Origin: Mayamaea pseudoterrestris
Lineage: Eukaryota > Bacillariophyta > Bacillariophyceae > Sellaphorales > Sellaphoraceae
Length of the DNA stretch: 64,000 bases
Assembly (NCBI GenBank): GCA_027923505.1
Contig: BROI01000033.1
Span: 81,001-145,000 of the forward strand
Direction: 5' to 3'
The notes under the pieces are model-generated. The model saw nothing but the letters and a program-made list of their open reading frames with translations. It did no database searches and had not been told where the DNA came from. Each line of letters begins with the position of its first letter. Position 1 is the stretch's first letter. This document shows, piece by piece, positions 2,099 to 57,475 of this stretch. The translations under genes were made by a program, and so were the position numbers.

Positions 2099-4068
2099 TT
2101 ATCGTAACATGGGAGCGTACGAGTGTGCATGCTTTTCACCGGGGAGCAAAGGTCGCACTGTATTCGGTTGTCGTGTCAGGCAGAGAACTCGCTCCCAAGT
2201 GCGTCCGTGCGGATCCATGTGACGAGGGCTCGTCTTCACCATTTCGGGTATGGGCAGCCACACCATGCGATTGTTGCAGAGGCCAACGGAGAAGCCGGTA
2301 AAGCCGGCCATGGCGCCATGAACAGCATTTTGAGCAAGCTGCATGCAGTATAGGCTGTCAGCGGCATTTGCAGGGACGGATCGAACAGTGTACGACGGGT
2401 CAATGTATTTGACTGCGATTGAGAATTCAAGCACGTCAAAAAGTAAGTGATTGATGCATCCCGCCTGCTTTCAATCCAAAAATATGATTTAATAACAACC
2501 ACTTACCTGTAGCGGTTTCTCCATGCTTTGTAAAGTAATCTTCGACGGCTTTCTTCAAAAATTCGCCAATCTTGGGTAATTTCTTGTTGCCGCTCGCGTC
2601 AGTCTCTGCAGACTTTCCCAGCAGTTCTTCGCCGGCTGTACTTGCAGACAAATAGACAGTTAGCTGTATGATTGATACCGACAACAGAATGCGAGCATTA
2701 TTGGTTATTCCCTTTACTTACCTCCCTCAGCACATACGATAACGGCATAGCCTTGTTGTTTCACGCGTCTCATCAGATGCGGCAAACAACCATTTTCTCC
2801 TTCCAGCTCAATTGGCACTTCGGGAACCAGACACAAGTCTACATCTGAACTCGCCATGGTTGCATGCGATGCAATGAACCCACTGGATCGCCCCATGAGC
2901 TTAACGATTCCAATGCCATTGGGAATGTTGCAGACCGCTTCCGTCTTGGCGGATCGAATGGCCACTTGCGCTGCTTCCACGGCACTACTAAACCCAAACG
3001 AGTGGTCAATGTAGTCGACATCGTTGTCAATCGTCTTTGGAATTCCGGCCACCGAGACGTTCAGACCTTGCTCCATGCAACCTTCATGAATAGCAAAGGC
3101 ACCCCGATGAGTTCCATCGCCGCCAATCACGTAGAGCTGACATACGTTCTTCTCCTTCAAGAACTTGATAATCTTTGGTAAATCAAATCCGCCCCGACTG
3201 GATCCCAAGCAGGTGCCACCGATATGATGAATATCTTCAACGACGGCTGGCGTCAAAATGATGGGTTGAAGGTGAGGGCTCGTGTCGTAGAATCCGCGAT
3301 AACCGCCTTGAATGCCGTAGACATGACCCCCGATCCCATAAAGTTGATGCAGTGTTTTGGTGATCTCGCGAATGACATTGTTTAGACCGGGCTATGTGTG
3401 TATGGTTACGAGTTGAAATTATTTTGTGAGGTTCGCAATGAAGAACGAAGTCTTCCACCAGTTTCTCCACTTACACAAAGTCCTCCGCAAGTCACAATCG
3501 CTGCATTCACTTTCTTTGGATCAAAATGCAGTAGTTTTCGTGGACCGGCTCGCATATAACCGACAGTACTCGGCACCATCCCAGGCTTCCTCACAATTTC
3601 ACTCAAAATGAGTTGATTGTCGGTAATTAACTTGTTATACTCGGCACCCCGAACTGTTACAATTTCATCGTGAAAGGCATCAATGGTCGACGACGAAACG
3701 ACGCGTCGCAGCATGGGCGATCGAATCACGCCAGTATACTCGACAGCCTTGTTTTCCATGCGATTCTCCACTTGGGCGGAAACGAAGCGCTTGCGCAAAT
3801 CTTCAATCACCCAAGCATAGACGCGGTCAATGGAAAATCCTTCGACAAGTACGCCACTGGGAGGTTCATCTTGCTCCGCGCGTGTTGTCGATTCCGAGGC
3901 TTTGAGAGATTGTTCCTGAAGATACTGCTGATAGCGAATCTGCTGGTGCTTGCGCTCCTCCAAGGTTCTGGTAATGGCGTAAGTTACAAAGGACGCCACT
4001 GCGGCGACTGCTATTGTGGCGATCGTCTGATCTATCTGGCTATTGTTGCTATTGTTATTAGAGCGCAT
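2099..4068 (-). CDS. PFK: 6-phosphofructokinase, ATP-dependent plant-like type
   Basis: Four exons on the minus strand: 4068-3475, 3391-2722, 2635-2507 and 2412-2099 (stop TAA), giving 568 aa. The introns (83, 86 and 94 bp) are GT-AG and preserve frame: ...CGGLC|PGLNNVIREI, ...CAEG|AGEELLG and ...GETAT|VKYIDPSY. The enzyme phosphorylates fructose 6-phosphate in glycolysis. Family motifs are clear: GGDGT near residues 286-290, PKTIDND near 316-322 and MGRSSGF. Gly rather than Asp after GGD is the hallmark of ATP rather than pyrophosphate use; Lys in PKTIDND is common in plant-type ATP-PFKs. The first ~40 residues contain an uninterrupted hydrophobic stretch (IATIAVAAVASFVTYAI) after a polar Asn-rich start. 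It looks like a membrane anchor or a targeting signal and is unusual for a soluble glycolytic enzyme. Confidence 0.93.
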
Positions 4069-4226
4069 AATGATCTTGTATTGAATATGATCCTCACTGT
4101 GCTTGCCTCTGGAGCAAACTCGGAAGATTTAGCGGAAGAATCTGTTTGGACGTCGCTGTTGCGCGCCGCGGCGTCACGCTAGTACGATTCATCCAATCAG
4201 ATCGATGAAACCTGTTGGGCCTTTTT

Positions 4227-4547: not shown

Positions 4548-5522
4548 ATGGTCTCTCGAATATCCAATCCACGAGGAGCGCATCAGCGCACCCGGCGGTC
4601 CAGTTCCATGGTGGTGCTTATAGTTGGATTCATTGGCGGCTTTTCGCTCTCCAAACTGTTGGATCGAATTGTTATGAATGGAGATGAATCAAGAATATCG
4701 TATATACTTGCAAAGCAATTACCAAACACCAAGGACTATAGGAGTAGCGACAGAATCGTGTCGGATGCTCATGGATGGGGCACGATTCATGTCTTTTACG
4801 GCGAGGCGTCTGCAATCTTTGGCGACGACACATCGCAACAATTCTTTGCACAAGTCAAGCAGGACGAGATTGTGTTGGATCTAATGCGAGACATTACAGA
4901 CAGAAGCAAGGTCAAATCCCAGGATGAACACCCATTCTTTTTCATTGATTTGGCTGCCAACGATGCCAAAACACTCAGCAACACGCTCGCACTGGAGCAG
5001 CGTGGTTGGCAAGGCCTTTGCATTGAACCGAACCCTGCTTACTAGTATGGACTCGCGCATCGTCGCAACTGCACCGTGATTGGAGCGCTGATCTCCGACA
5101 AGGTGGCGCCAACGCAGGTCAAGTTCCGAGGCGTCTTTGGTGGAATCGTTGGACAAATGGATGAAAAGCTGGCAAACCGTTTGCACGAGCCGGATCGAAT
5201 CGAGGAAACACGATATACTGTGCCGTTCGTAACGCTCCTTGCTCAGTTTCGAGTGCCGAAAGTGATTGATTATATGAGTCTCGACGTGGAAGGTGCCGAG
5301 TTTCTTGTCATGCACGATTTCCCGTTCGACGAGTACACCATTCAAATATTGACGGTAGAGCGTCCATCCAAACGACTGAAATCGCTTTTGGAGAGCCATG
5401 GTTACGTCTTTTTGAAAGATCTTGCCTGGTGGGGCGAAACCTTGTGGGCGCATCAATCTACTGGGCTGTCGCCACTGCATCCAAAGATTGTCAAAATCAA
5501 GACTGAGGGCAGGGATCGATGA
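4548..5522 (+). CDS. FkbM-type SAM methyltransferase, interrupted by one in-frame TAG
   Basis: A single reading frame of 325 codons runs from ATG 4548 to TGA 5520-5522 and is broken once, by TAG at 5043-5045. Upstream it encodes an N-terminal signal anchor (MVVLIVGFIGGFSLSKLL, near residues 21-38), then the SAM-binding FFIDLAANDAKTLSNT and GLCIEPNPAY. After the stop it continues without a shift as YGLAHRRNCTVIGALISD, then SLDVEGAEF, the second FkbM signature. The normal family order is therefore spread across the stop. The topology suggests a type II membrane methyltransferase of the secretory pathway; the substrate is unknown. I see no GT-AG pair that removes only the stop and keeps the family motif. 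The TAG sits where this family often has Trp or another aromatic/polar residue, so a TGG-to-TAG mutation, readthrough or a base-call error are all possible. Confidence 0.72.
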
Positions 5523-5740
5523 CGATTTTTATTAGTGACGTTACATGAAACACCTATAGAGAATATGGAAGTATAGAATTCATTTATAAAGTTAGAATTA
5601 CATAATGGTGAATGATTGTTTCCTCGTGTTACCCCTCGCACTTGCACTCCTTGCACTTGACTCGAGACGCGAATCAACGACAGGTTAAGGGATGTAAGAA
5701 TGTAAAGAGGTAGTCTTGCGCACGTTTCGCGTCTCGGAGT

Positions 5741-6764: not shown

Positions 6765-7480
6765 ACAAAATAGGTGTGCACAAGGTTTGCTGGGAGGTGT
6801 AGTGGCTGGCAAGATACTACATAGGATTGGTGGTAACTTGTCACCAGTCTCAGCCAGCAGCTGCCATGCCCTTTAAATGCCCATACCTTGAGCCATGTGT
6901 ATGCCCCAATCAAGCCAGAATGGTGCTAACATCCTTATTTCAGGTGTGCTACAAGATGGGTTGCCTGGCTGGTGTCTCAGTGGACTGCAATGTGATTGGT
7001 GATAACTTGACACCAGTCTCAGCCAGCAGCTGCCATGCCTTTCAAATGCCCATACCTTGAGCCATGTGTATGCCCATATCAAGCCAGAATGATACTAACA
7101 TCCTTATTTCAGGTGAACTTCAAGGGAAGATGACTGGCTGCTGTATCAGTGGACTGCAATGTGATTGGTGATAACTTGTCACTTGCCATGCCTTTCAAAT
7201 GCTCATACCTTGAGCCATGTATATACCCAAATCAAGCCAGAATGGTGCTAACATCCTTATTTCAGGTGCGCTACAAAATATAATGACTGGCTGGTGTCTC
7301 AGTGGACTGCAATGTGATTGGTGATAACTTGTCACCAGTCTCAGCCAGCAGCTGCCATGCCTTTCAAATGCCCATACCTTGAGCCATGTGTATGCCCAAA
7401 TCAAGCCAGAATGGTTCAAACATCCTTATTTCAGGTGTGCTACAAGATAAGATGACTGGCTGGTGTTTCAGTGGACTGCT
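6765..7480 (+). repeat. Satellite unit A, left array (~167-bp period, about 4 copies)
   Basis: The marker GGTGRTAACTTG recurs near 6829, 7001, 7167 and 7320, a spacing of 153-172 bp. Each unit then reads roughly CAGCCAGCAGCTGCCATG, TTCAAATGCCCATACC, CCAAATCAAGCCAGAATGG, TGCTAACATCCTTATTTCAG and GTGTCTCAGTGGACTGC. The first copy is diverged. The palindrome-like box GGTGATAA-C-TTGTCACC is embedded in each unit. The array merges directly into the longer unit B at about 7480. The short open frames here repeat with the unit and are not treated as genes. Confidence 0.88.
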
Positions 7481-10400
7481 TGTTGGATCTGCAAGCTGAG
7501 TCTCACCATGGCACACATGGTGGTAGAGACTGAAATGGATGCTACTGAACAAAGCATTGGCCCATCAAGACAACAAACATGATTGAAAAGGATTTCAGGG
7601 CTCAGAAGGCAGCGCTGATGATCTTTATAGCCACAAAGTGTGCACTGCTGGCACATTCCACCATTGGTTGGATGTGCGGAGTCTCATGGCAAAGGGATGG
7701 GTTACACCCAAGGTGACAAGCCTATGAGTCCTAATCAAATTGAAACATAATGTTCGTTGTATTCCAGAATTGGCAGGCCATTCTGGCAGACAGAAGTGCC
7801 ATTGGAGGTGCACTGATAGCAGATCCAACAAGTTGTTGTCTCTGCTGAGTCCCACCATGGCATACGTGGTGTTGGAGACTGGAATGGGTGCAACTGACAA
7901 AAGCATTGGCTCATCATAATCAAACATGAGAAAGGATTCCAGGCTCGCTAGAAGGCAGCGCGATGATCTCCTGTAGCCAAAAAGGGTGCTGGCACATTCA
8001 ACCAGTATGGTGTGAGCGATGGGTGCACTGACAAAGCATTGAGTCCCGTGATGAATTGAGAACCAGCATAATGTTCTTTGTATTCCAGAATTGGCAGGCT
8101 TCTGGCAGTCAGAAGTGCCACTTGAGGTGCACTGCTACTGCAGATTCAACAAGTTGTTGAATCTGCAAGCCGAGTCTCACCATGGCACACATGGTGGTGG
8201 AGACTGAAATGGATGCAACTGACCAAAGCATTGGCCCATCATGACAACAAACATGAATCAGAAAAGTTTCAGGGCTCAGAAGGCAGCGCTGATGATTCCT
8301 GTAGCCAAAGGCCGCTGGCACATTCAACCATTGGAATGTGCGGAGTCTCATGGCAAAGGGATGGTTTCCACACCCAAGGTGACAAGCCTTTAAGTCCTCA
8401 TCAAATGAAAACACAATGTTCATTGTATTCCAATCTTGGCAGGCCATTCTGGCAGTCAGAAGTGTCACTTGGGTGCACTGCTAGCAGATTCAACAAGTTG
8501 TTGGATCAGCAAGCTGCGTCCCACCATGGCACACATGGTGGTGGAGACTGAAATGGATGCTACTGAACAAAGCATTAACCAATCAAGAAAACAAACATAA
8601 AATGAAAAGGATTTCAGGGCTCAGAAGGCAGCGCTGATGATCCCTGTAGCCAAAAAGGGTGCACCGCTGGCACATTCAACCATTGGTTGAATGTGTGGAG
8701 TCTCATGGCAAAAGGATGGGTTTCACACCCAAGGTGACAAGCCTTTGAGTCCTTATCAAATTGAAACATAATGGTTTTTGTATTCCAGAATTGGCAGGCA
8801 GTTCTCGCAGTCATAAGTGCCACTTGAGGTGCACTGCTAGCAGATCCAACAAGTTGTTGGATCTGCAAGCTGAGTCTCACCATGGCATACGTGGTGTTAG
8901 AGACTAGAATGGGTGCAACTGACCATAGCATTGGCCCGTCATGACACCAAACATGAATTGGAAAGGATTTCAGGGCTCAGAAGGCAGCGCTGATGATCCC
9001 TGTAGCCAAGAAGGGTGCACCGCTGGCACATTCAAAATTGAGTGAATGTGTGGAGTCTCTTGGCAAAATGATAGTTTCCACACCCAAGGTGACACGCCTT
9101 TGAGTCCTAATCAAATTGTAACACAATGTTCTTTATATTCCAGAATTGGCAGGCCATTCTGGCAGTCCGATGTGCCAATTAAGGTGCACTGCTAGCAGAT
9201 CCAACAAGTTGTTGGATTTGCAAGTATCACCATGGCATACGTGTCGGTGGAGACTGGAATGGGTGCAACTGAACACAAAGCATTGGCCAATCATGACACC
9301 AAACATGAATTGGAAAGGATTTCAGGGCTCAGAAGGCAGCGCTGATGATCCCTGTAGCCAAAATGGGTGCACCGCTGGCACATTCAACCATTGGTTGAAT
9401 GTGCGGAGTCTCATGGCAAAATGATGGTTTCCACACCCAAGGTGACAAGCCTTTGAGTCCCAATCAAATTGAAACATAATGTTCTTTGTATTCCAGAATT
9501 GGCAGGCCGTTCTGGCAGTCCAATGTGCCACTTGAGGTGCACTGCTAGCAGATCCAACAAGTTGTTGGATCTGCAAGCTGAGTCTCACCATGGCATACGT
9601 GGTGTTGGAGACTGGAATGGGTGCAACTGACCAAAGCATTGGCCCATCATGACACCAAACATGAATTGGAAAGGATTTCAGGGCTCAGAAGGCAGCGCTG
9701 ATGATCCCTGTAGCCAAAAAGGGAGCACCGCTGGCACATTCAATCATTGGTTGAATGTGCGGAGTCTCTTGGCAAAAGGATGGGTTCCACACCCAAGGTG
9801 ACAAGCCTTTGAGTCCTAATCAAATCGAAACACAATGTGCATTATATTCCAGAATTGGCAGACCGTTCTGGCAGTCAGAAGTGCCACTTGAGGTGCACTG
9901 CTAGCAGATCTAACAAGTTGTTGGATCTGCAAGCTGAGTCTCACCATGGCACACATGGTGGTAGAGACTGAAATGGATGCTACTGAACAAAGCATTGGCC
10001 CATCATGACACCAAACATGAATTGGAAAGGTTTTCAAGGCTCAGAAGGCAGGGCTGATGATCCCTGTAGCCAAAATGGGTGCACCGCTGGCACATTCAAC
10101 CATTGGTTGAATGTGCGGAGTCTCATGGCAAAAGGATGGTTTCCACACCCAAGGTGACAAGCCTTTAAGCCCTAATCAAATTGAAACATAATGTTCTTTG
10201 TATTCCAGAATTGGCAGACCGTTCTGGCAGTCAGAAGTGCCACTTGAGGTGCACTGCTAGCAGATTCAACAAGTTGTTGGATCTGCAAGCTGAGTCCCAA
10301 CATGACACACATGGTGGTGGAGACTGAAATGGATGCTACTGAACAAAGCATTGGCCCATCATGACACCAAACATAAAATGAAAAGGATTTCAGGGCTCAG

Positions 10401-13400
10401 AAGGCAGCGCTGATGATCCCTGTAGCTAAAAGGGTGCACTGCTGGCACATTCAACCAATGGTTGAATGTGCAAAGTCTCATGGCAAAGGGATGGTTTCCA
10501 CACCCAAGGTGACAAGCCTTTGAGTCCTAATCAATTTGAAACACAATGTTCGTTGTATTCCAGATTTGGCAGGCCATTCTGGCAGTCAGAAGTGCCACTT
10601 GAGGTGCACTGCTAGCAGATTCAACAACTTGGATGTGCAAGCTGAGTCCCACCATGGCATACATGGTGGCGGAGACTGAAATGGATGCTACTGAACACAG
10701 CATTGGCCCATCATGACACCAAACATGAATTGGAAAGGATTTCAGGGCTCAGAAGGCAGCGCTGATGATCCCTGTAGCCAAAATGGGTGCACCGCTGGCA
10801 CATTCAACCATTGGTTGAATGTGCGGAGTCTCATGGCAAAGGGATGGGTTCCACACCCAAGGTGACAAGCCTTTGAGTCCTAATCAATTTGAAACACAAT
10901 GTTCGTTGTATTCCAGATTTGGCAAGCCATTCTGGCAGTCAGAAGTGCCACTTGAGGTGCACTGCTAGCAGATTCAACAAGTTGTTGGATCTGCAAGCTG
11001 CGTCCCACCATGGCACACATGGTGGTGGAGACTGAAATGGATGCTACTGAACAAAGCATTGGCCTATCAAGACAACAAACATAAAATGAAAAGGATTTCA
11101 GGGCTCAGAAGGCACCACTGATGGTCCCTGTAGCCAAAAAGGGTGCACTGCTGGCACATTCCACCAATGGTTGAATGTGTGGAAGCTCATGGCAAAGTGA
11201 TGGTTTCCACACCCAAGATGACAAGCCTTTGAGTTCTAATCAATTTGAAACACAATGTTCGTTGTATTCCAGATTTGGCAGGCCATTCTGGCAGTCTGAA
11301 GTGCCACTTGAGGTGTACTGCTAGCAAATTCAACAAGTTGTTGGATCAGCAAGCTGCGTCCCATCATGGCACACATGGTGGTGGAGACTGAAATGGATGC
11401 TACTGAACAAAGCATTGGCCCATCAAGACAACAATCATGAAATGAAAAGGATTTCAGGGCTTGGAAAGCAGCGCTGATGATCCCTGTAGCCAAAAAGGGT
11501 GCCCCACTGGCACATTCAACCATTGGTTGAATGTGTGGAGTCTCATGGCAAAGGTATGGTTTCCACACCCAAGGTGACCAGCCTTTGAGTCCTAATCAAA
11601 TGGAAACACAATGTTCTTTGTATTCCAGTGTTGACAAGTGGTTCTGGCAGTCAGAAGTGCCACTTGAGGTGCACTGCTAGCAGATTCAACAAGTTGTTGG
11701 ATCTGCAAGCTGCGTCCCACCATGGCACACATGGTGGTGGAGACTGAAATGGATGCTACTGAACAAAGCATTGGCCTATCAAGACAACAAACATAAAATG
11801 AAAAGGATTTCAGGGCTCAGAAGGCAGCGCTGATGATCCCTGTAGCCAAAAAGGGTGCACTGCTGGCACATTCAACCAATGGTTGAATGTGCGGAGTCTC
11901 ATGGCAAAGGGATGGTTTCCACACCCAAGGTGACAAGCCTTTGAGTCCTAATCAATTTGAAACACAATGTTCGTTGTATTCCAGTGTTGACAAGTGGTTC
12001 TGGCAGTCTGAAGTGCCACTTGAGGTGCACTGCTAGCAGATTCAACAAGTTGTTGGATCTGCAAGCTGAGTCCCAACATGACACACATGGTGGTGGAGAC
12101 TGAAATGGATGCTACTGAACAAAGCATTGGCCCATCATGACACCAAACATAAAATGAAAAGGTTTTCAGGGCTCAGAAGGCAGCGCTGATGATCCCTGTA
12201 GCCAAAAAGGGTGCACTGCTGGCACATTCAACCAATGGTTGAATGTGCGGAGTCTCATGGCAAAGGGATAGGTTCCACACCCAAGGTGACGAGCCTTTGA
12301 GTTCTAATCAATTTGATACACAATCTTCGTTGTATTCTAGTGTTGACAAGTGGTTCTGGTAGTCTGAAGTGCCACTTGAGGTGCACTGCTAGCAAATTCA
12401 ACAAGTTGTTGGATCAGCGAGCTGCGTCCCACCATGACACACATGGTGGTGGAGACTGAAATGGATGCTACTGAACAAAGCATTGGCCCATCAAGACAAC
12501 AATTATGAAATAAATAGGATTTCAGGGCTCAGAAGGCAGCGCTGGTGATCCCTGTAGCCAAAAAGGGTGCACTGCTGGCACATTCAACCAATGGTTGAAT
12601 GTGCGGAAGCTCATGGCAAAGGGATGGGTACCACACCCAAGGTGACAAGCCTTTGAGTCCTAATCAAATTGAAACACAATGCACTTTCTATATCATTGTT
12701 GGCAAGCAGTTCTGGCAGTCAAAAGTGCCACTTGAGGTGCACTGCTAGCAGATCCAACAAGTTGTTGGATCTGCAAGCTGCGTCCCACCATGGCACACAT
12801 GGTGGTGGAGACTGAAATGGATGCTACTGAACAAAGCATTGGCCCATCAAGACAACAATCATGAAATGAAAAGGATTTCAGGGCTCAGAAGGCAGCGCTG
12901 ATGATCCCTGTAGCCAAAAAGGGTGCACTGCTGGCACATTCAACCAATGGTTGAATGTGCGGAGTCTCATGGCAAAGGGATGGTTTCCACACCCAAGGTG
13001 ACAAGCCTTTAAGTCCTCATCAAATGAAAACACAATGTTCATTTTATTCCAATCTTGGCAGGCCATTCTGGCAGTCAGAAGTGTCACTTGAGGTGCACTG
13101 CTAGCAGATTCAACAAGTTGTTGGATCTGCAAGCTGAGTCTCACCATGACACACATGGTGGTGGAGACTGAAATGGATGCTACTGAACAAAGCATTGGCC
13201 CATCAAGACACCAATCACGAAATGAAAAGGATTTCAGGGCTCAGAAGGCAGCGCTGATGATCCCTGTAGCCAAAAAGGGTGCACTGCTGGCACATTCAAC
13301 CAATGGTTGAATGTGCGGAGTCTCATGGCAAAGGGATGGTTTCCACACCCAAGGTGACAAGCCTTTGAGTCCTAATCAATTTGAAACTCAATGTTCGTTG

Positions 13401-15750
13401 TATTCCAGTGTTGACATGTGGTTCTAGCAATCTGAAGTGCCACTTGAGGTGCACTTCTAGCAGATCCAACAAGTTGTTGGATCTGCTAGCTGAGTCCCAC
13501 CATGGCACACATGCTGGTGGAGACTGAAATGGATGCTACTGAACAAAGCATTGGCCCATCAAGACACCAATTATGAAATGAAAAGGATTTCAGGGCTCAG
13601 AAGGCAGCGCTGATGATCCCTGTAGCCAAAAAGGGTGCACTGCTGGCACATTCAACCATTGGTTGAATGTGCGGAGTCTCATGGCAAAGGGGGAGGTTTC
13701 CACACCCAAGGTGATGAGCCTTTAAGTCCTCATCAAATGAAAACACAATGTTCATTGTATTCTATTATTGGCAGGCCATTCTGGCAGTCAAAAGTGACAC
13801 TTGAGGTGTACTGCTAGCAGATTCAACAAGTTGTTGGATCTGCAAGTTAAGTCCCACCATGGCACACATGGTGGTGGAGACTGAAATGGATGCTACTGAA
13901 CAAAGCATTGACACAGCAAGAGACCAATCATGAAATGAAAAGGATTGCAGGGCTCAGAAGGCAGCGCTGATGATCCCTGTAGCCAAAAAGGGTGCACTGC
14001 TGGCACATTCAACCAATGGTTGAATGTGCGGAGTCTCATGGCAAAGGGATGGGTTCCACACCCAAGGTGACAAGCCTTTGAGTCCTAATCGGATTGAAAC
14101 ACAATGTTCTTTTTATTCCAGAATTGGCAGACCATTCTGGCAGTCAGAAGTGTCACGTGAGGTGCACTGCTAGCAGATTCAATGAGTTGATGGATCTGCA
14201 AGGTGAGTCCCACCATGGCACACATGGTGGTGGAGACTGAAATGGATGCTACTGAACAAAGCATTGGCCCAGCCAGACACCAATCATGAAATGAAAAGGA
14301 TTTCACGGCTCAGAAGGCAACGCTGATGATCCCTGTAGCCAAGAAGGGTGCACTGCTGGCACATTGAAGCAATGGTTGAATGTGCGGAGTCTCATGGCAA
14401 AGGGATGGTTTCCACACCCAAGGTGACAAGCTTTTGAGTCCTAATCAAATGGAAACACAATGATCATTGTATTCCAGATTTGGCAGGCCATTCTGGCAGT
14501 CAGAAGTGCCACTTGAGGTGCACTGCTAGCAGATTCAACAAGTTGTTGGATCTGCAAGCTGCGTCCCACCATGGCACACATGGTGGTGGAGACTGAAATG
14601 GATGCTACTGAACAAAGCATTGGCCCATCAGGACACCAATTACGAAATGAAAAGGATTTCAGGGCTCAGAAGGCAGCGCTGATGATCCCTGTAGCCAAAA
14701 AGGGTGCACTGCTGGCACATTCAAGCAATGGTTGAATGTGCGGAGTCTCATGGCAAAGGGATGGTTTCCACACCCAAGGTGACAAGCCTTTAAGTCCTCA
14801 TCAAATGAAAACACAATGTTCATTGTATTCCAATCTTGGCAGGCCATTCTGGCAGTCAGAAGTGCCACTTGAGGTGCACTGCTAGCAGATTCAACAACTT
14901 GGATGTGCAAGCTGAGTTCCACCATGGCACACATGGTGGTGGAGACTGAAATGGATGCTACTGAACAAAGCATTGGCCCATCAAGACAACAATCATGAAA
15001 TGAAAAGGATTTCAGGGCTCAGAAGGCAGTGCTGATGATCCCTGTAGCCAAAAAGGGTGCGCTGCTGGCACATTCAACCAATGGTTGAATGTGCGGAAGC
15101 TCATGGCAAAGGGATGGGTTTCACACCCAAGGTGACAAGCCTTTGAGTCCTAATCAATTTGCAACACAATGCACTTTCCATATCATAATTGGCAAGCAGT
15201 TCTGGCAGTCAAAAATGCCACTTGAGGTGCACTGCTAGCAGATTCAACAAGTTGTTGGATCTGCAAGCTGAGTCCCACCATGGCACACATGGTGGTGGAG
15301 ACTTAAATGGATGCTACTGAACAAAGCATTGGCCCATCATGACACCAATCATGAAAGGAAAATAAATTTAGGGCTCAGAAGGCAGCGCTGATGATCCCTG
15401 TAGCCAAAAAGGGTGCACTGCTGGCACATTCAACCATTGGTTGAATGTGCGGAGACTCATGTCAAAGGGATGGTTTCCACACCCAAGGTGACAAGCCTTT
15501 GAGTCCTCATCAAAAGAAACACAATGTTCATTGTATTCCAGATTTGGCAGGCCAGTCAGAAGTGCCACTTGAGGTGCACTGCTAGCAAATCCAACAAGTT
15601 GTTGGATCTGCTAGCAGAGTCTTACCATGGCATATGCGGTGGTGGAGACTGGAATGGGTGCAACTGGCCAAATCATTGGCCCATCATTTAGACACCAAGA
15701 TGAATTGGAAAGGATTTCAGGGCTCAGAAGGTAGCACTGATGATCCCTGT
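7481..15750. repeat. Satellite unit B, about 24 copies of a ~353-bp unit
   Basis: The box GGCTCAGAAGG (or a variant) occurs near 7599, 7950, 8271, 8618, 8971, 9326, 9681, 10038, 10393, 10745, 11101, 11457, 11813, 12168, 12526, 12881, 13237, 13593, 13949, 14307, 14662, 15016, 15371 and 15721, a mean spacing of 353 bp. Each unit carries three strong palindromes: a 25-bp one with arms CACATTCAACCA and TGGTTGAATGTG (for example 9379-9403), a 27-bp one with arms GCAGATCCAACAA and TTGTTGGATCTGC (for example 8840-8866), and CCACCATG-5 nt-CATGGTGG. CTGCTAGCAG and CAGCGCTG are further short palindromes. The second copy (7940-8110) is the most decayed. Later copies (from about 11450) belong mostly to a sub-variant with ATGAAATGAAAAGG in place of ATGAATTGGAAAGG. 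Several minus-strand frames of ~105 codons recur once per unit; 353 is not a multiple of 3, so no continuous protein results. Confidence 0.93.
8140..8166. repeat. 27-bp palindrome, variant with both arms changed
   Basis: The arms GCAGATTCAACAA and TTGTTGAATCTGC are exact reverse complements around one G. At 8840-8866 the same position reads GCAGATCCAACAA / TTGTTGGATCTGC, also exact. Many other copies have the intermediate TTCAAC with TTGGA, which would be a T-G mismatch in DNA or a G-U pair in RNA. This is a representative of the repeated element. Confidence 0.85.
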
Positions 15751-16100
15751 AGGGGTGTTTGATTTGGGTGTATACATGGCTTGCTGTAGGGGCATTTGAA
15801 TGTCACGGCGTCTGCGGGTTGAGACTGGTGACAAGTTGTCACCAATCACATTGCTGTCTACTGAGACACCAGCCAAGCATACCATCTTGTAGCGCAGCCG
15901 GTAAAATGATGTTGGCACCATTCTGGTATAATTTGGGTGTATACATGGCTTGCTGTAGGGGCATTTGAATGTCAAGGCATCTGTGGGCTAGACTGGTGAC
16001 AAGTTGTCCCCAATCAAATTTCTGTCTACTGTGACACCATCCAAGCATACCATCTTGTAGCACAACCTCAAAAATGATGTTAGCACCATTCTGGTATAAT
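15751..16100 (-). repeat. Satellite unit C, the A unit in inverse orientation (about 2 copies)
   Basis: Two ~165-bp units read as the reverse complement of unit A, diverged: TTTGGGTGTATACATGGC, GGGGCATTTGAATGTC, GAGACTGGTGACAAGTTGTC, GTCTACTGAGACACCA and CATACCATCTTGTAGC. A perfect 19-bp palindrome lies at 15826-15844 (TGGTGACAA, G, TTGTCACCA). The array starts exactly where the last unit B is cut, about 30 bp into its conserved box. Confidence 0.82.
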
Positions 16101-17195
16101 TGGGTGCATACATGGGTGGTGGCTGGCAGGCAGCATGGGTTTCAGCTACTCAAATACACTCAATTGCCATAGCCATGGGCCAGGTAGTTTCAATATGAGT
16201 CTCTGCGGTTGCTGGGCATGCATTAAGAATGTAGGATGTGCAATCCATTCAATGGTATACCAACAAACCCTCTAGTAAAATGACCGGGGTTGGGTTCAGC
16301 ATGGGTGTTAGCTACTCAAACACACTCAATAGCCATAGCCATGGGCCAGCCAGCTTCAATAGAAATCTCTGCGGTTGCTAGACATGGATTGCGATCAATT
16401 CAATGGTATACCTTCAAACCCTTCAGTAAAATGACTGGGGTTGAGTGGGATTTGGTGGTGGATGGCAGGCAGCATGGGTTTCAGCTTTTCAAACACACTC
16501 AATAGCATAGCCATGGGCCAGCCAGCTTCAATATGAGTCTCTGCGGTTACTAGGCATGAGGTAAGAATGTAGGATTAGCAATCCATGCAATGGTATACCT
16601 TCAATCCCTCCTGTAAAATGATTGGGGTTAGGTTCAGCATGGGATCCAGCTACTCAAACACACTCAATAGCCATAGCCATGGGCCAGCCAGCTTCAATAT
16701 GAGTCTCTGCGGTTGCTAGGCATGCATAAAATATGTAGGATGTGCAATCCATTCAATGGTATACCATCAAACCCTCCAGTAAAATGACCGTTCTTCGGTG
16801 GGGTTTATTGGTGGCTGGCAGGAGCATGGGTTTCAACTACTCAAACACACCCAATAGCCATAGCCATGGGCTAGCCAGCTTCAATATGAGTCTCTGTGGT
16901 TGCTAGGCATGGATTAAGGAGTTAGATGTGCAATCCATTCAATGATATACTTTCAAACCTTCCAGTTAAATGACCGGGGTTGGGTGGGGTTTGGTGGTGG
17001 CTGGCCGGCCGGCAGCTCTCAAACACACTCAATAGCCATAGCCATGGGCCAGCCAGCTTCAATATGAGTCTCTGCGGTTGCTAGGCATGGATTAAGGATC
17101 TAGGATGTGAAATCCATTCAATGGAATACCTACAAACCCTCCAGGAAAATGTCGGGTTAGGTTCAGCATGGGTTTCAGCTACTCAAACACTCTCA
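16101..17195. repeat. Satellite unit D, about 7 copies of a ~172-bp unit
   Basis: The box AATAGCCATAGCCATGGGCC (or a close variant) recurs near 16160, 16330, 16502, 16667, 16852, 17031 and, truncated, near 17185, with spacings of about 165-185 bp. Each unit contains CTCTGCGGTTGCTAGGCATG, GTAGGATGTGCAATCCATTCA and CCCTCCAGTAAAATGACC. A short palindrome TGGTATACCA occurs in several units and extends to ATGGTATACCAT at 16756-16767. I see no similarity to units A-C beyond length. Confidence 0.85.
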
Positions 17196-17640
17196 ATCGG
17201 TGACAACTTGTCACCAGTTTCAGCCAGCAGCTGCCATGCCTTTCAAATGCCCATACCTTGAGCCAGGTGTATGCCCAAATCATGCCAGTACGGTGCTAAC
17301 ATCCTTATTTCAGGTAAACAACAAGATAAGGTGACTGGCTGGTGTCTCAGTGGACTGCGATGTGATTGGTGATAACTTGTCACCAGCCAGCAGCTGCCAT
17401 GCCTTTCAAATGCCCATACCTTGAGCCATATGTATGCAGCAATCAAGCCAAAACGGTGCTAACATCCTTATTTCAGGTGTGCTACGAGATAAGATGAGTG
17501 GCTGCTGTCTCAGTGGACTGCAATGTGATTGGTGATAACTTGTCACCAGTCTCAGCCAGCAGCTGCCATGCCTTTCAAATGCTTATACCTTGAGCCATGT
17601 GTATGCCCAAATCAAGCCAGAATGGCGACTAGCAAGGCAA
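17196..17640 (+). repeat. Satellite unit A, right array (about 3 copies, the last truncated)
   Basis: It has the same orientation and the same boxes as the left array at 6765-7480. Copies begin near 17198, 17370 and 17533, and the last stops at about 17625 inside the AATCAAGCCAGAATGG box. The first copy has the perfect palindrome GGTGACAA-C-TTGTCACC at 17199-17215. Unit A therefore brackets the B-C-D block. The 3' end of the oxygenase-TPR gene lies 90 bp further on. Confidence 0.86.
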
Positions 17641-17729: not shown

Positions 17730-19352
17730 TTATCGCCCGGCAGCCAGCTTGTTGTAATTCTTCAAACCCATGATCTGTTGAAATCGTTCCACCATTAACT
17801 CTCGTGACAAGGAAGCAGCGCCTTGCTGATCTGATCTTATCCAATTACTAGCGGCTTGGTACAATGCACGCAGAGCCTTGCTTGTGCTCTCGGGTGAATC
17901 TGCATCGTCGACTGCTGTTCGAAATGCTTCGCATGCCTTGTCCCATTGCTTGCGACCCGCATAGCAGCATGCCAAGCTATATCTTGGTGCAAACGCACTA
18001 GGCATTGCGTCAAGTGCTTTTTGATAATATTGTATTTCCTCATCCTTGCCTTCGTACAGCACGCCAAGGTTGCAGTACGCAGTCGACAGTGCCGTGGATT
18101 TGGCGCGCGGAATGTCAATCAGCTTTCTATAGTACTTCTCCTCCGATTGTCGATCCCCATGTGCACAGCAGACTTGCGCCATGGTGGAAAGCGCGTCAAC
18201 ATCATACGGGTCACCCTTTAAACAAATCTCCATGCACGACTTGGCCTTGTCGTAGAGTTGCTGCTCAATACATAGGCACCCCAGCGTGTAGGCGCATTCG
18301 CCACTGCTCGAATGAATGTGCTCCAGGCAATATTCCAATGTTTCGCGTGCCTTTGCCATCTCGCCGCGACGATCATATTCGTTTGCCAATAAATTGTAGG
18401 CAGCGTCGCAGGCTGGATTTATCACGACAGCTGCTTCCAGTGCTCGTAGTTGCTCATCCGCTGATGTTTTCGCGTCTGGCGTCAATAATTGTCGAACTAG
18501 TTCTGGTCGGTTTTGATGCATACAGAATCCTCCAATGATATACCGCGTCCCAGATTCGACGGCGTGTCCGCAGTGCTTGACACCACCAGGTCGAATCGTC
18601 ACTTGACCTGCCGCATTCATTTCCAACACACCGTCATTTTCCTCAAGTCCTTCAAACCAAGTACCTCCTCCGGTATATTCATCCCTGCTGTTCAGTGCAA
18701 TGGTGAAGGATATTGCTCCACTATCCGTGTGAACGTCGGTGCGTTGGCCAGTCTCGCGCGTATATTTAAAAAGGTAGGCATTATCAACACAAATATCATC
18801 GGGAGAAGCAAAAAAGTTGTCAAACTGTTGACTCAACAAAGGGAATAGCCGTTCTCTGCAAGTCTTGGTGAACCATTCATGCACGCTAGGAACACTCTTG
18901 ATGAAAAAGCCGGCGACTTGATATTGGCCCGAGCTTTGCAAAGGCCATTCGCCTCGAAAATGGTCCTCCGCCATGCGAATGACTTGATCGCATTCCTCCT
19001 TGCTCAACAATGAAATAGGATCCGTCACATGAATGTTTCGTTCCAGTTCGTCTGCGAAATCGGGCAAGCATCCTGGCCCTTGAATGGAATAAGTCTTGAG
19101 TGATGGTTGCTGTAAAAGTGAGGAGGAACTCGACCCACTGTTAGCCGAGTTGGTGGGGTAGTTTTGTAATGCTCGCTCAACGGCTCGTTTCTGTCGCTTC
19201 ATTGCCAGCGCCTTGGCGTCTTGTATTTGTTGGTCGTTGACATGAGCTAGAAATGGTGGTCGTAGATTGGTGGATTGATGTGCATTAGTCGCCGAATCAA
19301 CAACGGATAAGGCGACTATAAAAAGTCCATGTAAATAATTATGTGGTCTCAT
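17730..19352 (-). CDS. 2OG-Fe(II) oxygenase (prolyl 4-hydroxylase-like) fused to TPR domain
   Basis: A single exon of 540 aa ending TAA. The start was chosen at ATG 19352 because the upstream in-frame codon at 19382 is GTG and because MRPHNYLHGLFIVALSVVDS makes a signal peptide. The N-terminal half shows the Fe(II) and 2-oxoglutarate ligand pattern of the P4H family: His-Thr-Asp near residues 208-210 (DVHTDSGAISFTIALN), the distal His near 260 (KHCGHAVESGTRYIIGGF) and Arg near 270. The C-terminal ~250 residues are TPR-like helical hairpins (AAYNLLANEYDRRGEMAKA, AYTLGCLCIEQQLYDKAKS, AYCNLGVLYEG, RYSLACCYAGRKQWDKACE). Expected to act in the secretory pathway on a protein substrate that is perhaps bound by the TPRs. 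Animal collagen P4H alpha puts its TPR-like substrate domain before the catalytic domain; here the order is reversed. Confidence 0.85.
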   Translation of the reverse strand: MRPHNYLHGLFIVALSVVDSATNAHQSTNLRPPFLAHVNDQQIQDAKALAMKRQKRAVERALQNYPTNSANSGSSSSSLLQQPSLKTYSIQGPGCLPDFADELERNIHVTDPISLLSKEECDQVIRMAEDHFRGEWPLQSSGQYQVAGFFIKSVPSVHEWFTKTCRERLFPLLSQQFDNFFASPDDICVDNAYLFKYTRETGQRTDVHTDSGAISFTIALNSRDEYTGGGTWFEGLEENDGVLEMNAAGQVTIRPGGVKHCGHAVESGTRYIIGGFCMHQNRPELVRQLLTPDAKTSADEQLRALEAAVVINPACDAAYNLLANEYDRRGEMAKARETLEYCLEHIHSSSGECAYTLGCLCIEQQLYDKAKSCMEICLKGDPYDVDALSTMAQVCCAHGDRQSEEKYYRKLIDIPRAKSTALSTAYCNLGVLYEGKDEEIQYYQKALDAMPSAFAPRYSLACCYAGRKQWDKACEAFRTAVDDADSPESTSKALRALYQAASNWIRSDQQGAASLSRELMVERFQQIMGLKNYNKLAAGR

Positions 19353-19645
19353 GGTTCCGGATAGCAGGCTAAATTCTGTCACCGGCTTTGTTCACAAGCA
19401 ACGACAGCTCTGAATGAGACGGATGGATTGTTGTGATGTTGAAGTGCGCAATGGAACGAGTGACGCTGCGATGAGAAAAAGAACGCCAGAAACGTCAGTT
19501 TCCAGTTGCTCCAGCTACGAGTGTTTCAATTAGCGCCAATTACAGTTACAGTGCTGTTACTGATAACAACTGTACTGCATCTTCTGGAAATCTACTTAAA
19601 TAACTGATTATGAATAAACTAAAGTTTGGTTTGGCGGAAGAATAG

Positions 19646-21220: not shown

Positions 21221-22049
21221 GGCGATGGTACTTGTAGTTGTATAAGTCAAAGTGTCAGTTCTCAAATGCTTGCAGTTGCGTCGTTGCGTCGAGATCTAGT
21301 ACTGCACGGCTGCACGACCTGAAAATACGAGCTGCCCGTTTCGCGAATCTTTTCCGTCTTTGTAGATACATGCTAGATGCTGGTGTTTCCGTAGATTGGC
21401 CAAACCTAGTGAACAAAGTTGTTCGTTGGCAACTGCGACCAATTTTGTCGAGCGAAAATTCGGGCATCGGAATTTCGAAATCTAGTTTAATCGAACCGGT
21501 AAGGAATCCGACGAAGCGCTCACTCGTTTCAGTTTCATACTAACAGTAAACCCTTTAGGCTTCGTTTTCACTGGCACCCGTTTCACACATATGCCTTTAG
21601 GCTTCGTTTTCACTCATAAGCCTTTAGGCTTCGTTGTCACTGGCACTCGTTTCACACATAAGCCTTTAGGCTTCGTTTTCACTGGCACTCGTTTCATACT
21701 ATTGCCTGCTCAGATGGGTCTCGTGCACGTTTTGCGCATGGCAGATCTTGCGCTGCTGGTGGTTGCATACTGCTACTGCATCTCATCCGTCGTTACTTTG
21801 CCATCAGCCCCTCTACGTTGCCTCATTGCAGTCTGATTTTGCAACTGAAGACTCTTTAGAATGCCGCCGCCTCCGCCGCCGTCCAAGTCGTACCTGTGGA
21901 AGTTTGATGCTACGACTCCGAAAACATCACACTGGTTATGACTCGCATCCAGACGTTCGACAAAATCAGAGGCGCTGTGGAGGTTTACCCAGACGCAATC
22001 CATCGTTTGAAGTAGAATCAAGACAATACAGAATTAATCAGTAAACACG
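21221..22049. other. Gene-free interval with a short tandem repeat
   Basis: This is the divergent promoter region between the Ser/Thr-rich gene and the mitochondrial TPR gene. It holds the 42-bp repeat described separately. Around 21840-22020 there are short protein-like frames on both strands (a start MPPPPPPSKSYLWKFDATTP at about 21859 on plus, stopped after 26 codons), but none could be joined by credible splice sites, so no gene is called. Confidence 0.55.
21552..21705 (+). repeat. Four tandem copies of a 42-bp repeat, one shortened to 27 bp
   Basis: The copies begin at about 21552, 21594, 21621 and 21663. The unit is CCTTTAGGCTTCGTTTTCAC followed by TGGCACTCGTTTCACACATA and AG. The second copy lacks the TGGCAC..TTTCA part. 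The copies are nearly identical, which points to a recent expansion. It lies about 350 bp upstream of the TPR gene start. Confidence 0.9.
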
Positions 22050-40529: not shown

Positions 40530-40601
40530 TCTCTGATAGTATAGTGGTTAGTATCCCCGCCTGTCACGCGGGAGACCGGGGTTCGATTCCCCGTCAGAGA
40601 A
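40530..40601 (+). tRNA. tRNA-Asp(GTC), copy 1
   Basis: A 72-nt cloverleaf without intron. The acceptor stem TCTCTGA (40530-40536) pairs exactly with TCAGAGA (40594-40600), with discriminator A at 40601. The anticodon arm CCCGC-CTGTCAC-GCGGG gives anticodon GTC at 40563-40565. The internal A box (TAGTATAGTGGTTAG) and B box (GGTTCGATTCC) are intact. CCA is not encoded, as expected for a eukaryotic gene. A TTTT run at 40605-40608 is the Pol III terminator. Confidence 0.97.
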
Positions 40602-40696: not shown

Positions 40697-40768
40697 TCTC
40701 TGATAGTATAGTGGTTAGTATCCCCGCCTGTCACGCGGGAGACCGGGGTTCGATTCCCCGTCAGAGAA
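40697..40768 (+). tRNA. tRNA-Asp(GTC), copy 2
   Basis: Identical in all 72 positions to copy 1 as far as I can read, starting 167 bp downstream in the same orientation. Acceptor arms are 40697-40703 and 40761-40767. The 5' flank (GGAAGCGC, then GTTG, AAGCG, CGCAAGA) recurs downstream of copy 2, so the duplication unit includes flanking DNA. Confidence 0.97.
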
Positions 40769-43934: not shown

Positions 43935-44610
43935 AAGTAAGTTCTCACCAGTCACATTACAGTCTACTGAGACACCAACCAGGCATACCATCTTCAAACG
44001 CAGACTAAAAAATGATGTTGGCATTATTCTGGTGTGATTTGGGTGAATACATGGCATGTTATATGGGCAATTGAATGACAAGGCATCTGTGGGCTGAGAC
44101 AAGTGAGAAGTTCTCACCAATCACATTGCAGTCTACTTATTTAACTACCGGGCATACCATCTTGTAGCTCAGACTGAATAATGATGTTGGCACCATTCTG
44201 GTGTGGTTTAGGTGTATACATGGCATGTTATATGGGCAATTGAATGACAAGGCATCTGTGGGCTGAGACTGGTGAGAAGTTCTCACCAGTCACATTGCAG
44301 TCTCCAAAAACACACCATGCCCTCCATCGTGTAGCGCAGCCTGTAAAATGATCTTGGCATCATTCTGGTGTAATTTGGGCACCTACAGGGCATGCTGAAG
44401 GGGCGTTTGAATGTCATGGCATCTGCGGGCTGAGACTGGTGACAAGTTGTCACCAGAAACATTGCCATCCCCTGAGACACCAACCAAGCCTACCATCCTG
44501 TAGCGCAGCTGGAATAATGATGTTGGTACCATTCTGGTGAATTTTGGGCACCTACAGGGCTTGCTGTAGGATCGTTTGAATGTCATGGCATCTGTGGGCT
44601 GAGACTGGTG
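43935..44610 (-). repeat. Second locus of satellite A/C, about 4 copies of a ~167-bp unit
   Basis: The units share TTCTCACCARTCACATTGCAG, GCATACCATCTTGTAGC, TGATGTTGGCACCATTCTGG and GGCATCTGTGGGCTGAGAC with unit C at 15751-16100 and, on the reverse strand, with unit A. They start near 43946, 44112, 44280 and 44447. Perfect palindromes lie at 44269-44289 (arms CTGGTGAGAA/TTCTCACCAG) and 44436-44456 (arms CTGGTGACAA/TTGTCACCAG). The last unit is broken inside the same palindrome at 44610, where the decayed copia element begins. Confidence 0.88.
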
Positions 44611-45072
44611 TTGCAGGATGCGAACGAAAACAGCGAAAATCGGGCAAGTCACACCGAATGTCCGATAGGGTGACACAGCGGCACTCGCGGCTCACCACAG
44701 CCTCACGATCGCGTGATGCGTGGCAGCGACGGCTTCGAAGCGATTCAACAAGTATATTGCTGAAACTAGTGCGATATAGAGTAGAAACAAGCAGACTTAC
44801 TAAGCTTGAAGAGTTAAGAAAGCGATTTATTCGTCTCTCGTATTGTAGCAACTGCAAGCTTGGATTGGCCATCCAAGGACAGCTACAAGCGAAAGGTGCA
44901 ACGATTTGATTTACAAGTTACAAGATTAACACTGTCTTGAGACTCATTGCCTCGGCATAGAGACTTTATCGACGAAGAGTACTATTGATTTACGAAGTAA
45001 CGTGGACGCACGTTGGTTCTTGGCCCGGAAAGTTCCGCAGGTGATAGCAAGAACATTGTCACGACGACAACG

Positions 45073-46498
45073 ATGGCGGAAACTCGCGCGCAGAAAGACG
45101 CGGCGTTTGCGCATGTTTACGAAGAGAACGTAGGCGTTTTCCAAGATCCTCAGTTCAAGGAGTTATTCGACGAACTCGGAGTAGAATCGCTTACGCAACT
45201 GATCGAGATGGAGTACGACGATTTCGCGACGAAGTGGAACGTCACGACGACGACAACGACGACGACTGACGATGGCGACAATGTCACGCAGGAAACGAGC
45301 GAACACTCGCTAACGAAGATGAAACAACGCACGATCACGAACGCGATCGAATGGTATTTGGCGCAAGAGTCGCCGGACATCAAGACATGGTCGCAACTGA
45401 CCACCGAAACGCTGGCGACGTTCGTCACAGCACGAGCGAAGGAACGAGTCCAAGCGCGCAACATTGCGAGCGTGGGCAGCGGAAGCGGAGCGAAACCTCC
45501 AGCGAAGGAAAGCGAAACGGAATCCAAGAAGGACGAATCCAAGGACTCCACGCTAACGAACGAAGGCAACGAGTCGAAGCCTGACTCGGCCGACAAGGTG
45601 CCACCGACGAGTGTGGACGTGGATGAAGCAGTCACCGACATCCGTACTGGACCTCGGCGACGACGAAGACGACGAGAAGTATTCAGACCAATTTACGAAG
45701 TCTATCAAGTTCTCGGCGAAGGATTGTAAAGAAATGAAGCTGGATTCCTCGTGGAAACAGTGGATTTCCGAGTTGAAAGTCATCGCTACATTGCATGACT
45801 TCCACGAAGTCTTTGACGACGATTATGACCCGAAGGAAAAGGGACCGAAAGAACAGAAGGCGTATGCAAAGAAGAATGTGTTTGTATACAGGATCTTTCT
45901 CACGCACTGTCGAACTCCGTCTGCATCACTCGCAGTACAGCAGTTCAAGAAGACGATGGACGGACGCGAAGTCTACCAACGATTGCGAACGCGATACGAA
46001 GAAGGCGCTACTGCTCACATCGAGAAGGAACGCGCGCGAACGGAACTGCAGGGAATGCGGCTGACCGAGAAGTGGTCACGGCCGACGATCGAATTTCTCG
46101 CACTGTTCTACAAGAAAGTCATCTGGCTGCTCGAAATGGACGCAGAAGCTCTGACAGGTTTACAACGATACGACATGCTACGCGACGCTTTCTCCGAGCA
46201 CACAGGATTCAGCGCATCACTAGCAGGTTTTGACGGAATGATTGCCATCAAGAAACACATGGGGCAACACGACTCGGAAGACAATTTCGCGCAGTTGTAC
46301 GCGCACTTAGAAGAGTGCTGCATCAAGTATGACAAGAAACACCCATCGACGACGAAGACTAAGCGCACAATCAATCAAGCGCAGTCTAGTGGAACGAAAG
46401 GAGGCGGCCGGCGGCAATGGCGGCGCGACTCCAAGCGGCTTATCGGCGGAACGATTTGCAGCGATCATGAAGAAACCTCACGCGAGCGTGAAGGATGA
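45073..46498 (+). pseudogene. Gag of the decayed copia element, frameshifted
   Basis: The start at ATG 45073 (MAETRAQKDAAFAHVYEENV) reads to 45729, where the frame ends; the sense continues in another frame from about 45660 (YSDQFTKSIKFSAKDCKEMK...) to about 46498. The second part aligns by eye with the Gag of the younger element (SWKQWISELKVIATLHDFHEVFDDDYDP, QKAYAKKNVFVYRIFLTHC, YQRLRTRYEEGA, SDRPTIEFLALFYKKV-like). A Gly/Arg-rich patch appears near 46395-46430 in place of a zinc knuckle. Confidence 0.75.
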
Positions 46499-50738: not shown

Positions 50739-51068
50739 TGACACGATAATATCAGACGAACCTTTATTCCAGCGACTACAATGGACTCGGAGCGATCAAC
50801 CTCTTCGTCCAGCGTAAAGCAAACAAACAAACTCAATTGCTAGAATAGTGCATGTTACTCGCTACTCTACTCGTGCGCTTCTTTCTCGTTCTCACTGGGT
50901 TCACGGTCGAGGTTCACGCCTCGATCGTCAGCGATTTCACTCATGTATGTGAGGATTCGGTCGGTCAAGTGGACTCAACCCTGCACAGGATTAAATGAAG
51001 ACAAAACCCAGGTACCTAACCGTCTCGTCATAAGACGCAGGTCACCTCAACCCAATAATATTGTGTCA
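50739..51068 (-). repeat. LTR A (3' LTR of internal region 1)
   Basis: 330 bp, bounded by TGACACGATAATAT and AATATTGTGTCA (short inverted ends TGACAC/GTGTCA). Its first ~230 bp match LTRs B and C exactly by eye; its last ~100 bp carry about ten differences (for example GGTCAAGTGG for ACAAGTGTG). Confidence 0.93.
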
Positions 51069-56928: not shown

Positions 56929-57146
56929 GATAGTGAATACCTCGCTTCCGCAAGTCCTTTCTCACACAACAACCGCTCTCAATGCGGTCGAGCCTTATAC
57001 GATCCTGTTCTACGCGCTCGTGCCAAGTATTCGGATTGACGACGCCGCAAGGAATCTGCTCTTTCTCTCTCAATTTCTCGATTCTTTCACTCTCTCTCTT
57101 TCGCACAGCTCTTTCAGGTCAAGACAAGCTAGCAAGACTGTTAATC

Positions 57147-57475
57147 TGACACGATAATATCAGACGAACCTTTATTCCAGCGACTACAATGGACTCGGAG
57201 CGATCAACCTCTTCGTCCAGCGTAAAGCAAACAAACAAACTCAATTGCTAGAATAGTGCATGTTACTCGCTACTCTACTCGTGCGCTTCTTTCTCGTTCT
57301 CACTGGGTTCACGGTCGAGGTTCACGCCTCGATCGTCAGCGATTTCACTCATGTATGTGAGGATTCGGTCACAAGTGTGACTCAACCCTGCACAGGATTA
57401 AATGCATACAAAACACAGGTAGCTAACCGTCTTGTCATAAGACGCAGGTCAACTCAACTCAATAATATTGTGTCA
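57147..57475 (-). repeat. LTR B (middle LTR)
   Basis: 329 bp, identical to LTR C by eye. On its right it joins internal 2 directly at GCGAGCCGCAG, a point that lies 156 bp inside internal copy 1 (51225). The join occurs exactly at the LTR terminus TGTGTCA. Confidence 0.95.

What the first reader, a model, noticed from the sequence alone, without database searches (positions are those of the whole stretch)
6765..17640. 11-kb satellite mosaic built from palindrome-bearing units
The sequence shows four blocks (A, B, C, D) with unit lengths of ~167, ~353 and ~172 bp. The 353-bp unit is close to twice the shorter ones. All are near mono- or di-nucleosome length, as is common in centromeric or heterochromatic satellites. 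Each unit carries at least one strong palindrome, and B has three. I know of no described diatom satellite with this organisation. A centromere, heterochromatin nucleator or cruciform-prone fragile region are inferences.
Basis: partly seen in the sequence, partly recalled or inferred. Interest (0 to 1): 0.82.

Follow-up and report, generated by a model that had tools for sequence, protein, structure and literature searches.

The report
Scattered satellite DNA mosaic, not centromere
An 11-kb stretch of tandemly repeated, nucleosome-length DNA units belongs to a set of satellite families scattered over this small algal genome; it is real, but it is one cluster among many rather than a special centromere, and its most interesting feature is a short motif that otherwise unlike families share.

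Summary
The mosaic is real (6796-17627). It holds three satellite families, not four: A (169 bp), B (356 bp) and D (about 166-183 bp), in the order A, B, inverted A, D, A; a further A array lies at 43939-44632. B is a dimer of two ~178-bp halves, each with a 27-bp odd-centred palindrome. Palindromes beat shuffles in A and both halves of B, not in D. The families are genome-wide: 8,571 A-like sites (about 4.7% of the assembly if each is a full unit) and 430 B-like sites, several arrays per contig; this 278-kb contig alone has at least five array sites. The array is not AT-rich and lies among genes. A centromere is not supported. Best reading: an interstitial cluster of a satellite library, assembled by illegitimate joining and maintained by unequal exchange. 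Most novel: AGTCTC occurs in 6 of 8 family groups (expected 0.57; 1 of 1,500 shuffles as extreme), directly beside the palindrome in A and B. That would fit a protein-binding module like the n-box/CENP-B-box dimers of alpha satellite, but shared ancestry explains it equally well.

The parts
6796..7479 (+). A satellite, 4 units of ~169 bp
   Evidence: TRF; nhmmer hits 6796-7448
7479..15752 (+). B satellite array, dimeric 356-bp units (degenerate first ~590 bp, then ~21.7 units); B begins at the centre of a B1 palindrome at the A|B join
   Evidence: TRF; sequence
8836..8870 (.). example of B1 palindrome (17-bp arms, 15 of 17 pairs, centre G)
9377..9405 (.). example of B2 palindrome (core GCACATTCAACCATTGGTTGAATGTGC)
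15757..16122 (-). A satellite in inverted orientation, ~2.1 units
   Evidence: TRF; nhmmer
15823..15847 (.). A palindrome (core GGTGACAAGTTGTCACC)
16131..17197 (+). D satellite, ~6 units
   Evidence: TRF; nhmmer hits 16156-17166
17196..17627 (+). A satellite, ~2.5 units
   Evidence: TRF
43939..44632 (-). second, separate A array in the window (~4 units), outside the finding
   Evidence: TRF

Best explanation
The region is an interstitial cluster of satellite DNA drawn from a genome-wide library of at least seven families with units of about 160-190 bp or twice that. Blocks of different families were brought together by illegitimate (microhomology or break-repair) joining and are kept as tandem arrays by unequal exchange or gene conversion. 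It most likely has no function specific to this locus. Shown: families, dispersal, copy number, dimer structure, neighbour-similarity gradient. Inferred: the joining mechanism, lack of locus-specific function, chromatin state.
For: A: 8,571 sites within 2 mismatches of a 24-mer (reversed-pattern control 0), about 1.45 Mb or 4.7% of 30.63 Mb if each is a full unit. B: 430 sites (control 0), about 0.15 Mb. Two rare-variant samples of A (15 and 16 sites) fall on 17 contigs together, at two or three places in each of C2, C3, C12 and C13. C33 has arrays at 0-10, 88-99, 125, 210, 245-261 and 268-278 kb; the last two may be one site split by an inserted repeat. Window B units are 0.917 identical at lag 1 and 0.892 at lag 15, a shallow, not strictly monotonic fall (0.905-0.908 at lags 18 and 20, few pairs). 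At 19 of 34 listed block junctions the two family matches overlap by 2-32 bp. Frames in the window match phosphofructokinase, TPR, 2-oxoglutarate dehydrogenase, G-beta WD40 and UGGT.
Against: Overlaps at junctions may be inflated by profile over-extension and no control was run; none of the window's own 4 junctions overlaps. The two frames just left of the cluster that were tested (3406-4128, 4881-5528) have no Pfam match, so gene density on that side is less sure. The AGTCTC sharing and symmetric palindrome changes between arrays hint at constraint. No chromatin, transcription or read data.
Confidence: 0.74

Rival explanations
1. The cluster is (peri)centromeric chromatin of this chromosome; the dimeric, palindrome-bearing B array is the core.
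For: Nucleosome-length units, dimer structure and dyad symmetry resemble satellite centromeres (PMC8997354, passages). Of the 100 A sites listed, the 96 on C1 (exact matches) all lie in one 17-kb block at 610-627 kb, so some homogeneous A arrays could be centromeric.
Against: At least five satellite sites on C33; B at several places on C2, C3, C6, C12 and C22; GC 0.47, whereas the reported diatom centromeres (Phaeodactylum tricornutum) are described as short, simple, AT-rich and non-repetitive (PMC7082073, passages); genes nearby.
Confidence: 0.1
2. The palindrome plus AGTCTC is a binding module for a dimeric DNA-binding protein (for example a domesticated transposase, CENP-B-like) that phases nucleosomes or promotes array upkeep; selection keeps the module while the rest of the unit drifts.
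For: AGTCTC in 6 of 8 family groups, expected 0.57, 1 of 1,500 shuffles as extreme; it starts 0-6 bp after the palindrome in the A, B1 and B2 consensuses. Conservation percentile within the unit: B2 palindrome 97th, A palindrome 88th, AGTCTC 93rd in A and 99th in D. Palindromy kept by double-sided changes between arrays.
Against: B1 palindrome only 55th percentile, AGTCTC 37th in B2 and 40th in J; D has no significant palindrome and the J palindrome is at the 2nd percentile. Within B1 the arms do not covary (11.69 pairs of 13 against 11.75 after reassignment, n 70). The families tested are those found near B arrays or at contig ends, some consensuses rest on few copies (K 2, M 7, F 9). Common descent would also give a shared motif, and template switching would also give symmetric changes.
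Confidence: 0.15
3. The units are parts of a mobile element (tandem MITE-like or Helitron-like) that moves arrays.
For: Dispersed, both orientations, mosaic blocks.
Against: No shared ends or target-site duplication noticed by eye at the window edges; no ATG frame above 112 aa in the mosaic; block junctions fall at many unit positions. Not tested systematically.
Confidence: 0.06
4. The mosaic is an assembly artefact.
For: Contigs often break near satellites: satellite in the terminal 700-900 bp at 18 of 60 ends, and at both ends of C33.
Against: Mosaic block structure recurs in other loci with different neighbours; B units differ by about 10%, which resists collapse.
Confidence: 0.04

Closest known systems
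Satellite DNA libraries (satellitomes), e.g. of grasshoppers (PMC8822648, search listing with start of abstract) and Tribolium madens (PMC13081366, full abstract)
   Same: Many families in one genome, tandem arrays, intermingled blocks, orientation changes
   Different: Here several families share nucleosome-length units and one hexamer, in a 30.6-Mb algal genome; arrays in the sampled loci are kilobases, not megabases
Primate alpha satellite A/B (n-box/CENP-B-box) dimers (PMC8997354, passages)
   Same: ~171-bp monomers forming a dimer, each half with a variant box at the corresponding place (here the B1 and B2 palindromes)
   Different: No CENP-B box shown here, dispersed arrays, no kinetochore evidence
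Dyad-symmetry-rich centromeric satellites (Kasinathan and Henikoff 2018, as cited in PMC8997354)
   Same: Short palindromes with hairpin or cruciform potential
   Different: Of the three window families only A and B have significant ones; centromere position untested
Centromeres of the diatom Phaeodactylum tricornutum (Diner 2017, not held; as described in PMC7082073 and PMC8754631, passages)
   Same: Photosynthetic stramenopile, if the host is a diatom
   Different: Those are described as short, simple, AT-rich and non-repetitive; this is a GC-0.47 tandem array

Membership tests
Satellite DNA | head-to-tail tandem units | tested here: met
   TRF
Satellite DNA | high copy number over the genome, non-coding | tested here: met
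   8,571 A-like and 430 B-like sites; longest ATG frame in the mosaic 112 aa
Satellite DNA | concerted evolution (neighbours more alike, or arrays homogenised) | tested here: met
   shallow lag gradient 0.917 to 0.892 in the window's B array; A arrays at 96% in L027 and L029
Centromeric satellite | one domain per chromosome | tested here: not met
   at least five array sites on C33, several per contig elsewhere; contigs may be less than chromosomes
Centromeric satellite | CENP-A occupancy | not testable with these tools
   no ChIP data
Diatom (P. tricornutum-type) centromere | AT-rich, non-repetitive DNA | tested here: not met
   lowest 500-bp GC in the array 0.444, mean 0.472; tandem array
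CENP-B-box-like satellite | short box conserved above the rest of the unit | tested here: inconclusive
   AGTCTC percentiles 0.93 A, 0.99 D, 0.79 E, 0.73/0.85/0.37 in B, 0.40 J
CENP-B-box-like satellite | bound by a sequence-specific protein | not testable with these tools
   needs a binding assay
Transposable element / MITE | fixed ends and target-site duplications | not tested
   only the window edges were looked at by eye

The most novel reading that the evidence does not exclude
A palindrome-plus-AGTCTC module of about 23-39 bp is a protein-binding box kept by selection in otherwise unlike nucleosome-length satellites of an alga: an independent counterpart of the alpha-satellite n-box/CENP-B-box dimer, with the B dimer carrying two alternating box variants.
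Probability: 0.13. Interest if true: 0.75.

Novelty: new member of a known kind. Interest (0 to 1): 0.4.

Why it matters
I saw no paper devoted to diatom satellites in the listings (one search showed 20 of 355, one search showed 12 of 13; the held library lacks most subscription journals). If the count of A is right, one 169-bp satellite alone takes about 4.7% of a 30.6-Mb algal genome, more than I would have expected (recalled, not from a call). A motif shared across families gives a concrete handle for finding a satellite-binding protein outside animals.

Tried and rejected
Hairpin flipping or template switching at the palindrome centre (a base to its complement): complement-type changes are not in clear excess (23 against 19 other transversions over 150 B units; 9 against 7 in the window's 23), and only B1, not B2, ranks high for homoplasy (4th of 99 columns against 77th); not supported. 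Large inverted structure in B: minus-strand profile hits recur along the B arrays, but the inverted comparisons of the palindrome flanks are not significant (p 0.87, 0.55), so I read those hits as coming from the palindromes. Palindromes as fixed joining sites: junctions fall at many unit positions (no statistic run). An 'older than other arrays' reading: window A blocks match at 82-90%, but A arrays elsewhere range from 80% (L028, L034) to 96% (L027, L029), so the window is at the diverged end but inside the range; I do not claim a greater age. Rfam at gathering cut-offs: only two tRNA genes in the window. Exact core motifs in IMG/VR (two scans) and in the prokaryote genomes (one scan): 0 hits (the tool may leave out records near the window's own genome). 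First k-mer test by raw count was not convincing (AGTCTC 8 of 11 against shuffle maxima of mean 6.6, up to 9); it became significant when each hexamer was judged against its own expectation and stayed so with related families collapsed. The pair counts include minus-strand hits that read palindromes twice; one search is the cleaned count. Host identity: light-harvesting genes whose best solved-structure matches are LHC/FCP proteins fit a diatom or related alga; likeness to diatom Lhcx is recalled. Mayamaea pseudoterrestris was a guess that I could not check (its genome paper is not held).
Full report
Observation. Tandem Repeats Finder gives A (169 bp) at 6825-7479, B (356 bp, 21.7 copies) at 8070-15752, a 168-bp array at 15762-16115, D (166-178 bp) at 16131-17197 and A again (163 bp) at 17199-17619. 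Profile searches extend this to 6796-17627 and show that the 15.76-16.12 kb block is A on the opposite strand. The mosaic is thus A+, B+, A-, D+, A+, with a further A- array at 43939-44632. B between 7479 and 8070 is degenerate.

Unit structure. B is a dimer. Its halves carry related 27-bp palindromes, GCAGATCCAACAA-G-TTGTTGGATCTGC (B1) and GCACATTCAACCA-T/A-TGGTTGAATGTGC (B2), and share flanking sequence in the same orientation (upstream p 0.011, downstream p 0.078; inverted comparisons p 0.87 and 0.55). Against 200 dinucleotide shuffles each, the best palindrome is as good in 0 for B1 and B2, 2 for A and 3 for one half of another family, K; it is not significant in D, E, F, H, J, M or the other half of K (63 to 200 of 200). 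Between arrays the palindromes differ by changes on both arms: d10 G-C to C-G and d7 C-G to T-A between B1 and B2; d2 A-T in B1, C-G in most B2 arrays, A-T in the B2 of L026, L028 and L067; d3 C-G to G-C in A of L021 and some of L028. Some array consensuses keep one or two unpaired positions. Within B1 the arms do not covary (11.69 against 11.75 pairs of 13, n 70); within B2 they do slightly (12.18 against 11.95, largest of 500 reassignments 12.05, n 131), and arrays of one subfamily contribute to this. This fits symmetry kept at the level of array consensus, by selection or by template switching; the data do not decide.

Genome context. The window is C33:81001-145000 of a 30,627,229-bp, 41-contig assembly. 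Listed hits of the window's B unit lie on 13 contigs (list cut); a pattern count gives 430 B-like sites, with places on C2, C3, C4, C6, C12 and C17 that the first list did not show (first 100 places shown). A-like sites number 8,571. In the listed (cut) rows D lies on 12 contigs, E on 10, J on 8; a query from a homogeneous A array matches on 12 contigs. J (about 177-181 bp) directly follows CCCTAA repeats at the start of C11, the only contig end where TTAGGG x4 was found, so J is subtelomeric there, but it also has interior arrays (C7:237-263 kb, C9:148-154 kb). Of 82 contig ends 62 were examined; 20 carry satellite: 18 of 60 within the last 700-900 bp (J 9, A 6, B 1, D 1, H 1) and both ends of C33. 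Six families beyond A, B and D were seen in the fetched loci (E, F/G, H, I/J, K, M) and nine profiles were built (K from 2 hits, M from 7, F from 9).

C33. Arrays lie at 0-10 kb (L033), 87.8-98.6 kb (the finding), 124.9-125.6 kb, 209.8 kb, 245.5-261.4 kb (L031, L032) and 268-278 kb (L034). The last two are separated by DNA that in part matches the repeated element of window 50.7-63.7 kb and may be one site; hence at least five.

Shared motif. Over 11 monomer consensuses AGTCTC is in 8 (A, B1, B2, D, E, F, J, K2; absent in H, M, K1), expected 0.65, the best of all hexamers and beyond the best of 600 shuffles. With B1/B2, D/E (weak cross-matches) and K1/K2 collapsed it is in 6 of 8 groups, expected 0.57; 1 of 1,500 shuffles is as extreme. 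In the window it occurs 59 times in the mosaic (5.45 per kb) and 33 times elsewhere (0.62 per kb); most of the 59 are copies of the same few unit positions and not independent. In the A, B1 and B2 consensuses it starts 0-6 bp downstream of the palindrome, and A and B1 share the core ACAA-N-TTGT. Its conservation within families is mixed: percentiles 0.93 (A), 0.73, 0.85 and 0.37 (B), 0.99 (D), 0.79 (E), 0.40 (J). Descent from one ancestral unit explains it as well as selection does.

Mechanism. Neighbouring B units of the window are slightly more alike than distant ones (0.917 at lag 1, 0.892 at lag 15), as unequal exchange predicts. Blocks of different families meet abruptly; at 19 of 34 listed junctions the two profile matches overlap by 2-32 bp, which suggests joining at short similarities, though over-extension may add to this and no control was run. 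In the window B starts at a palindrome centre (7479) and the last A starts at its palindrome (17196); the other two window junctions do not.

Centromere question. The cluster ends about 100 bp from a TPR-protein frame (17730-19391, minus strand); a phosphofructokinase-like frame lies at 2714-3391. GC is 0.47 with no AT-rich core. It is one of at least five satellite sites on C33. The described diatom centromeres (P. tricornutum) are short, AT-rich and non-repetitive (PMC7082073, passages). This speaks against a centromere here but does not exclude that some homogeneous A arrays elsewhere (for example C1:610-627 kb) are centromeric.

Known systems. Short dyad symmetries and n/B dimers are known traits of satellite centromeres (PMC8997354, passages), and intermingled satellite arrays with inversions are known from Tribolium (PMC13081366, abstract). 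The present case looks like a dispersed satellite library; it is not filed as a centromeric satellite.

Changes made on re-checking: contigs of the thinned A samples 17 (not 21); C33 sites 'at least five'; the claim that the window is older than arrays elsewhere is dropped; box spacing 0-6 bp; further families six.

Noticed in passing
window 50739-63736: A ~6.26-kb unit occurs twice in tandem at 99.86% identity (51225-57489 and 57476-63736), with a ~332-bp repeat at 50739-51069, 57147-57475 and 63397-63726. It holds a 1283-aa frame without a significant Pfam match. Similar DNA lies at several contig ends (L046, L052, L064, L068, L078, L094), next to satellite in L032, and a 243-bp piece of the short repeat sits inside a B array (L017:7543-7785).
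   Followed up: partly
window 21552-21696; L018:5510-5897: A 27/42-bp minisatellite near the TPR genes shares the piece CACTGGCACTCGTTTC with a 42-bp minisatellite on C6.
   Followed up: no
window 40530-40601 and 40697-40768: Two tRNA genes with the same score, 167 bp apart start to start.
   Followed up: no
L054 (C11:1-700); C30:219806: TTAGGG x4 was found only at the start of C11, where the J satellite follows at once, and once inside C30.
   Followed up: partly
window 44701-45598; L065 (C24:1-900): The start of contig C24 is 99% identical to this stretch just after the second A array, so a dispersed repeat or a duplicated segment begins there.
   Followed up: no
C10/C12 and C1/C34: D arrays on C10 and C12, and A arrays on C1 and C34, have pairwise equal scores and spacing, suggesting recent duplication or separated haplotypes in the assembly.
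   Followed up: no
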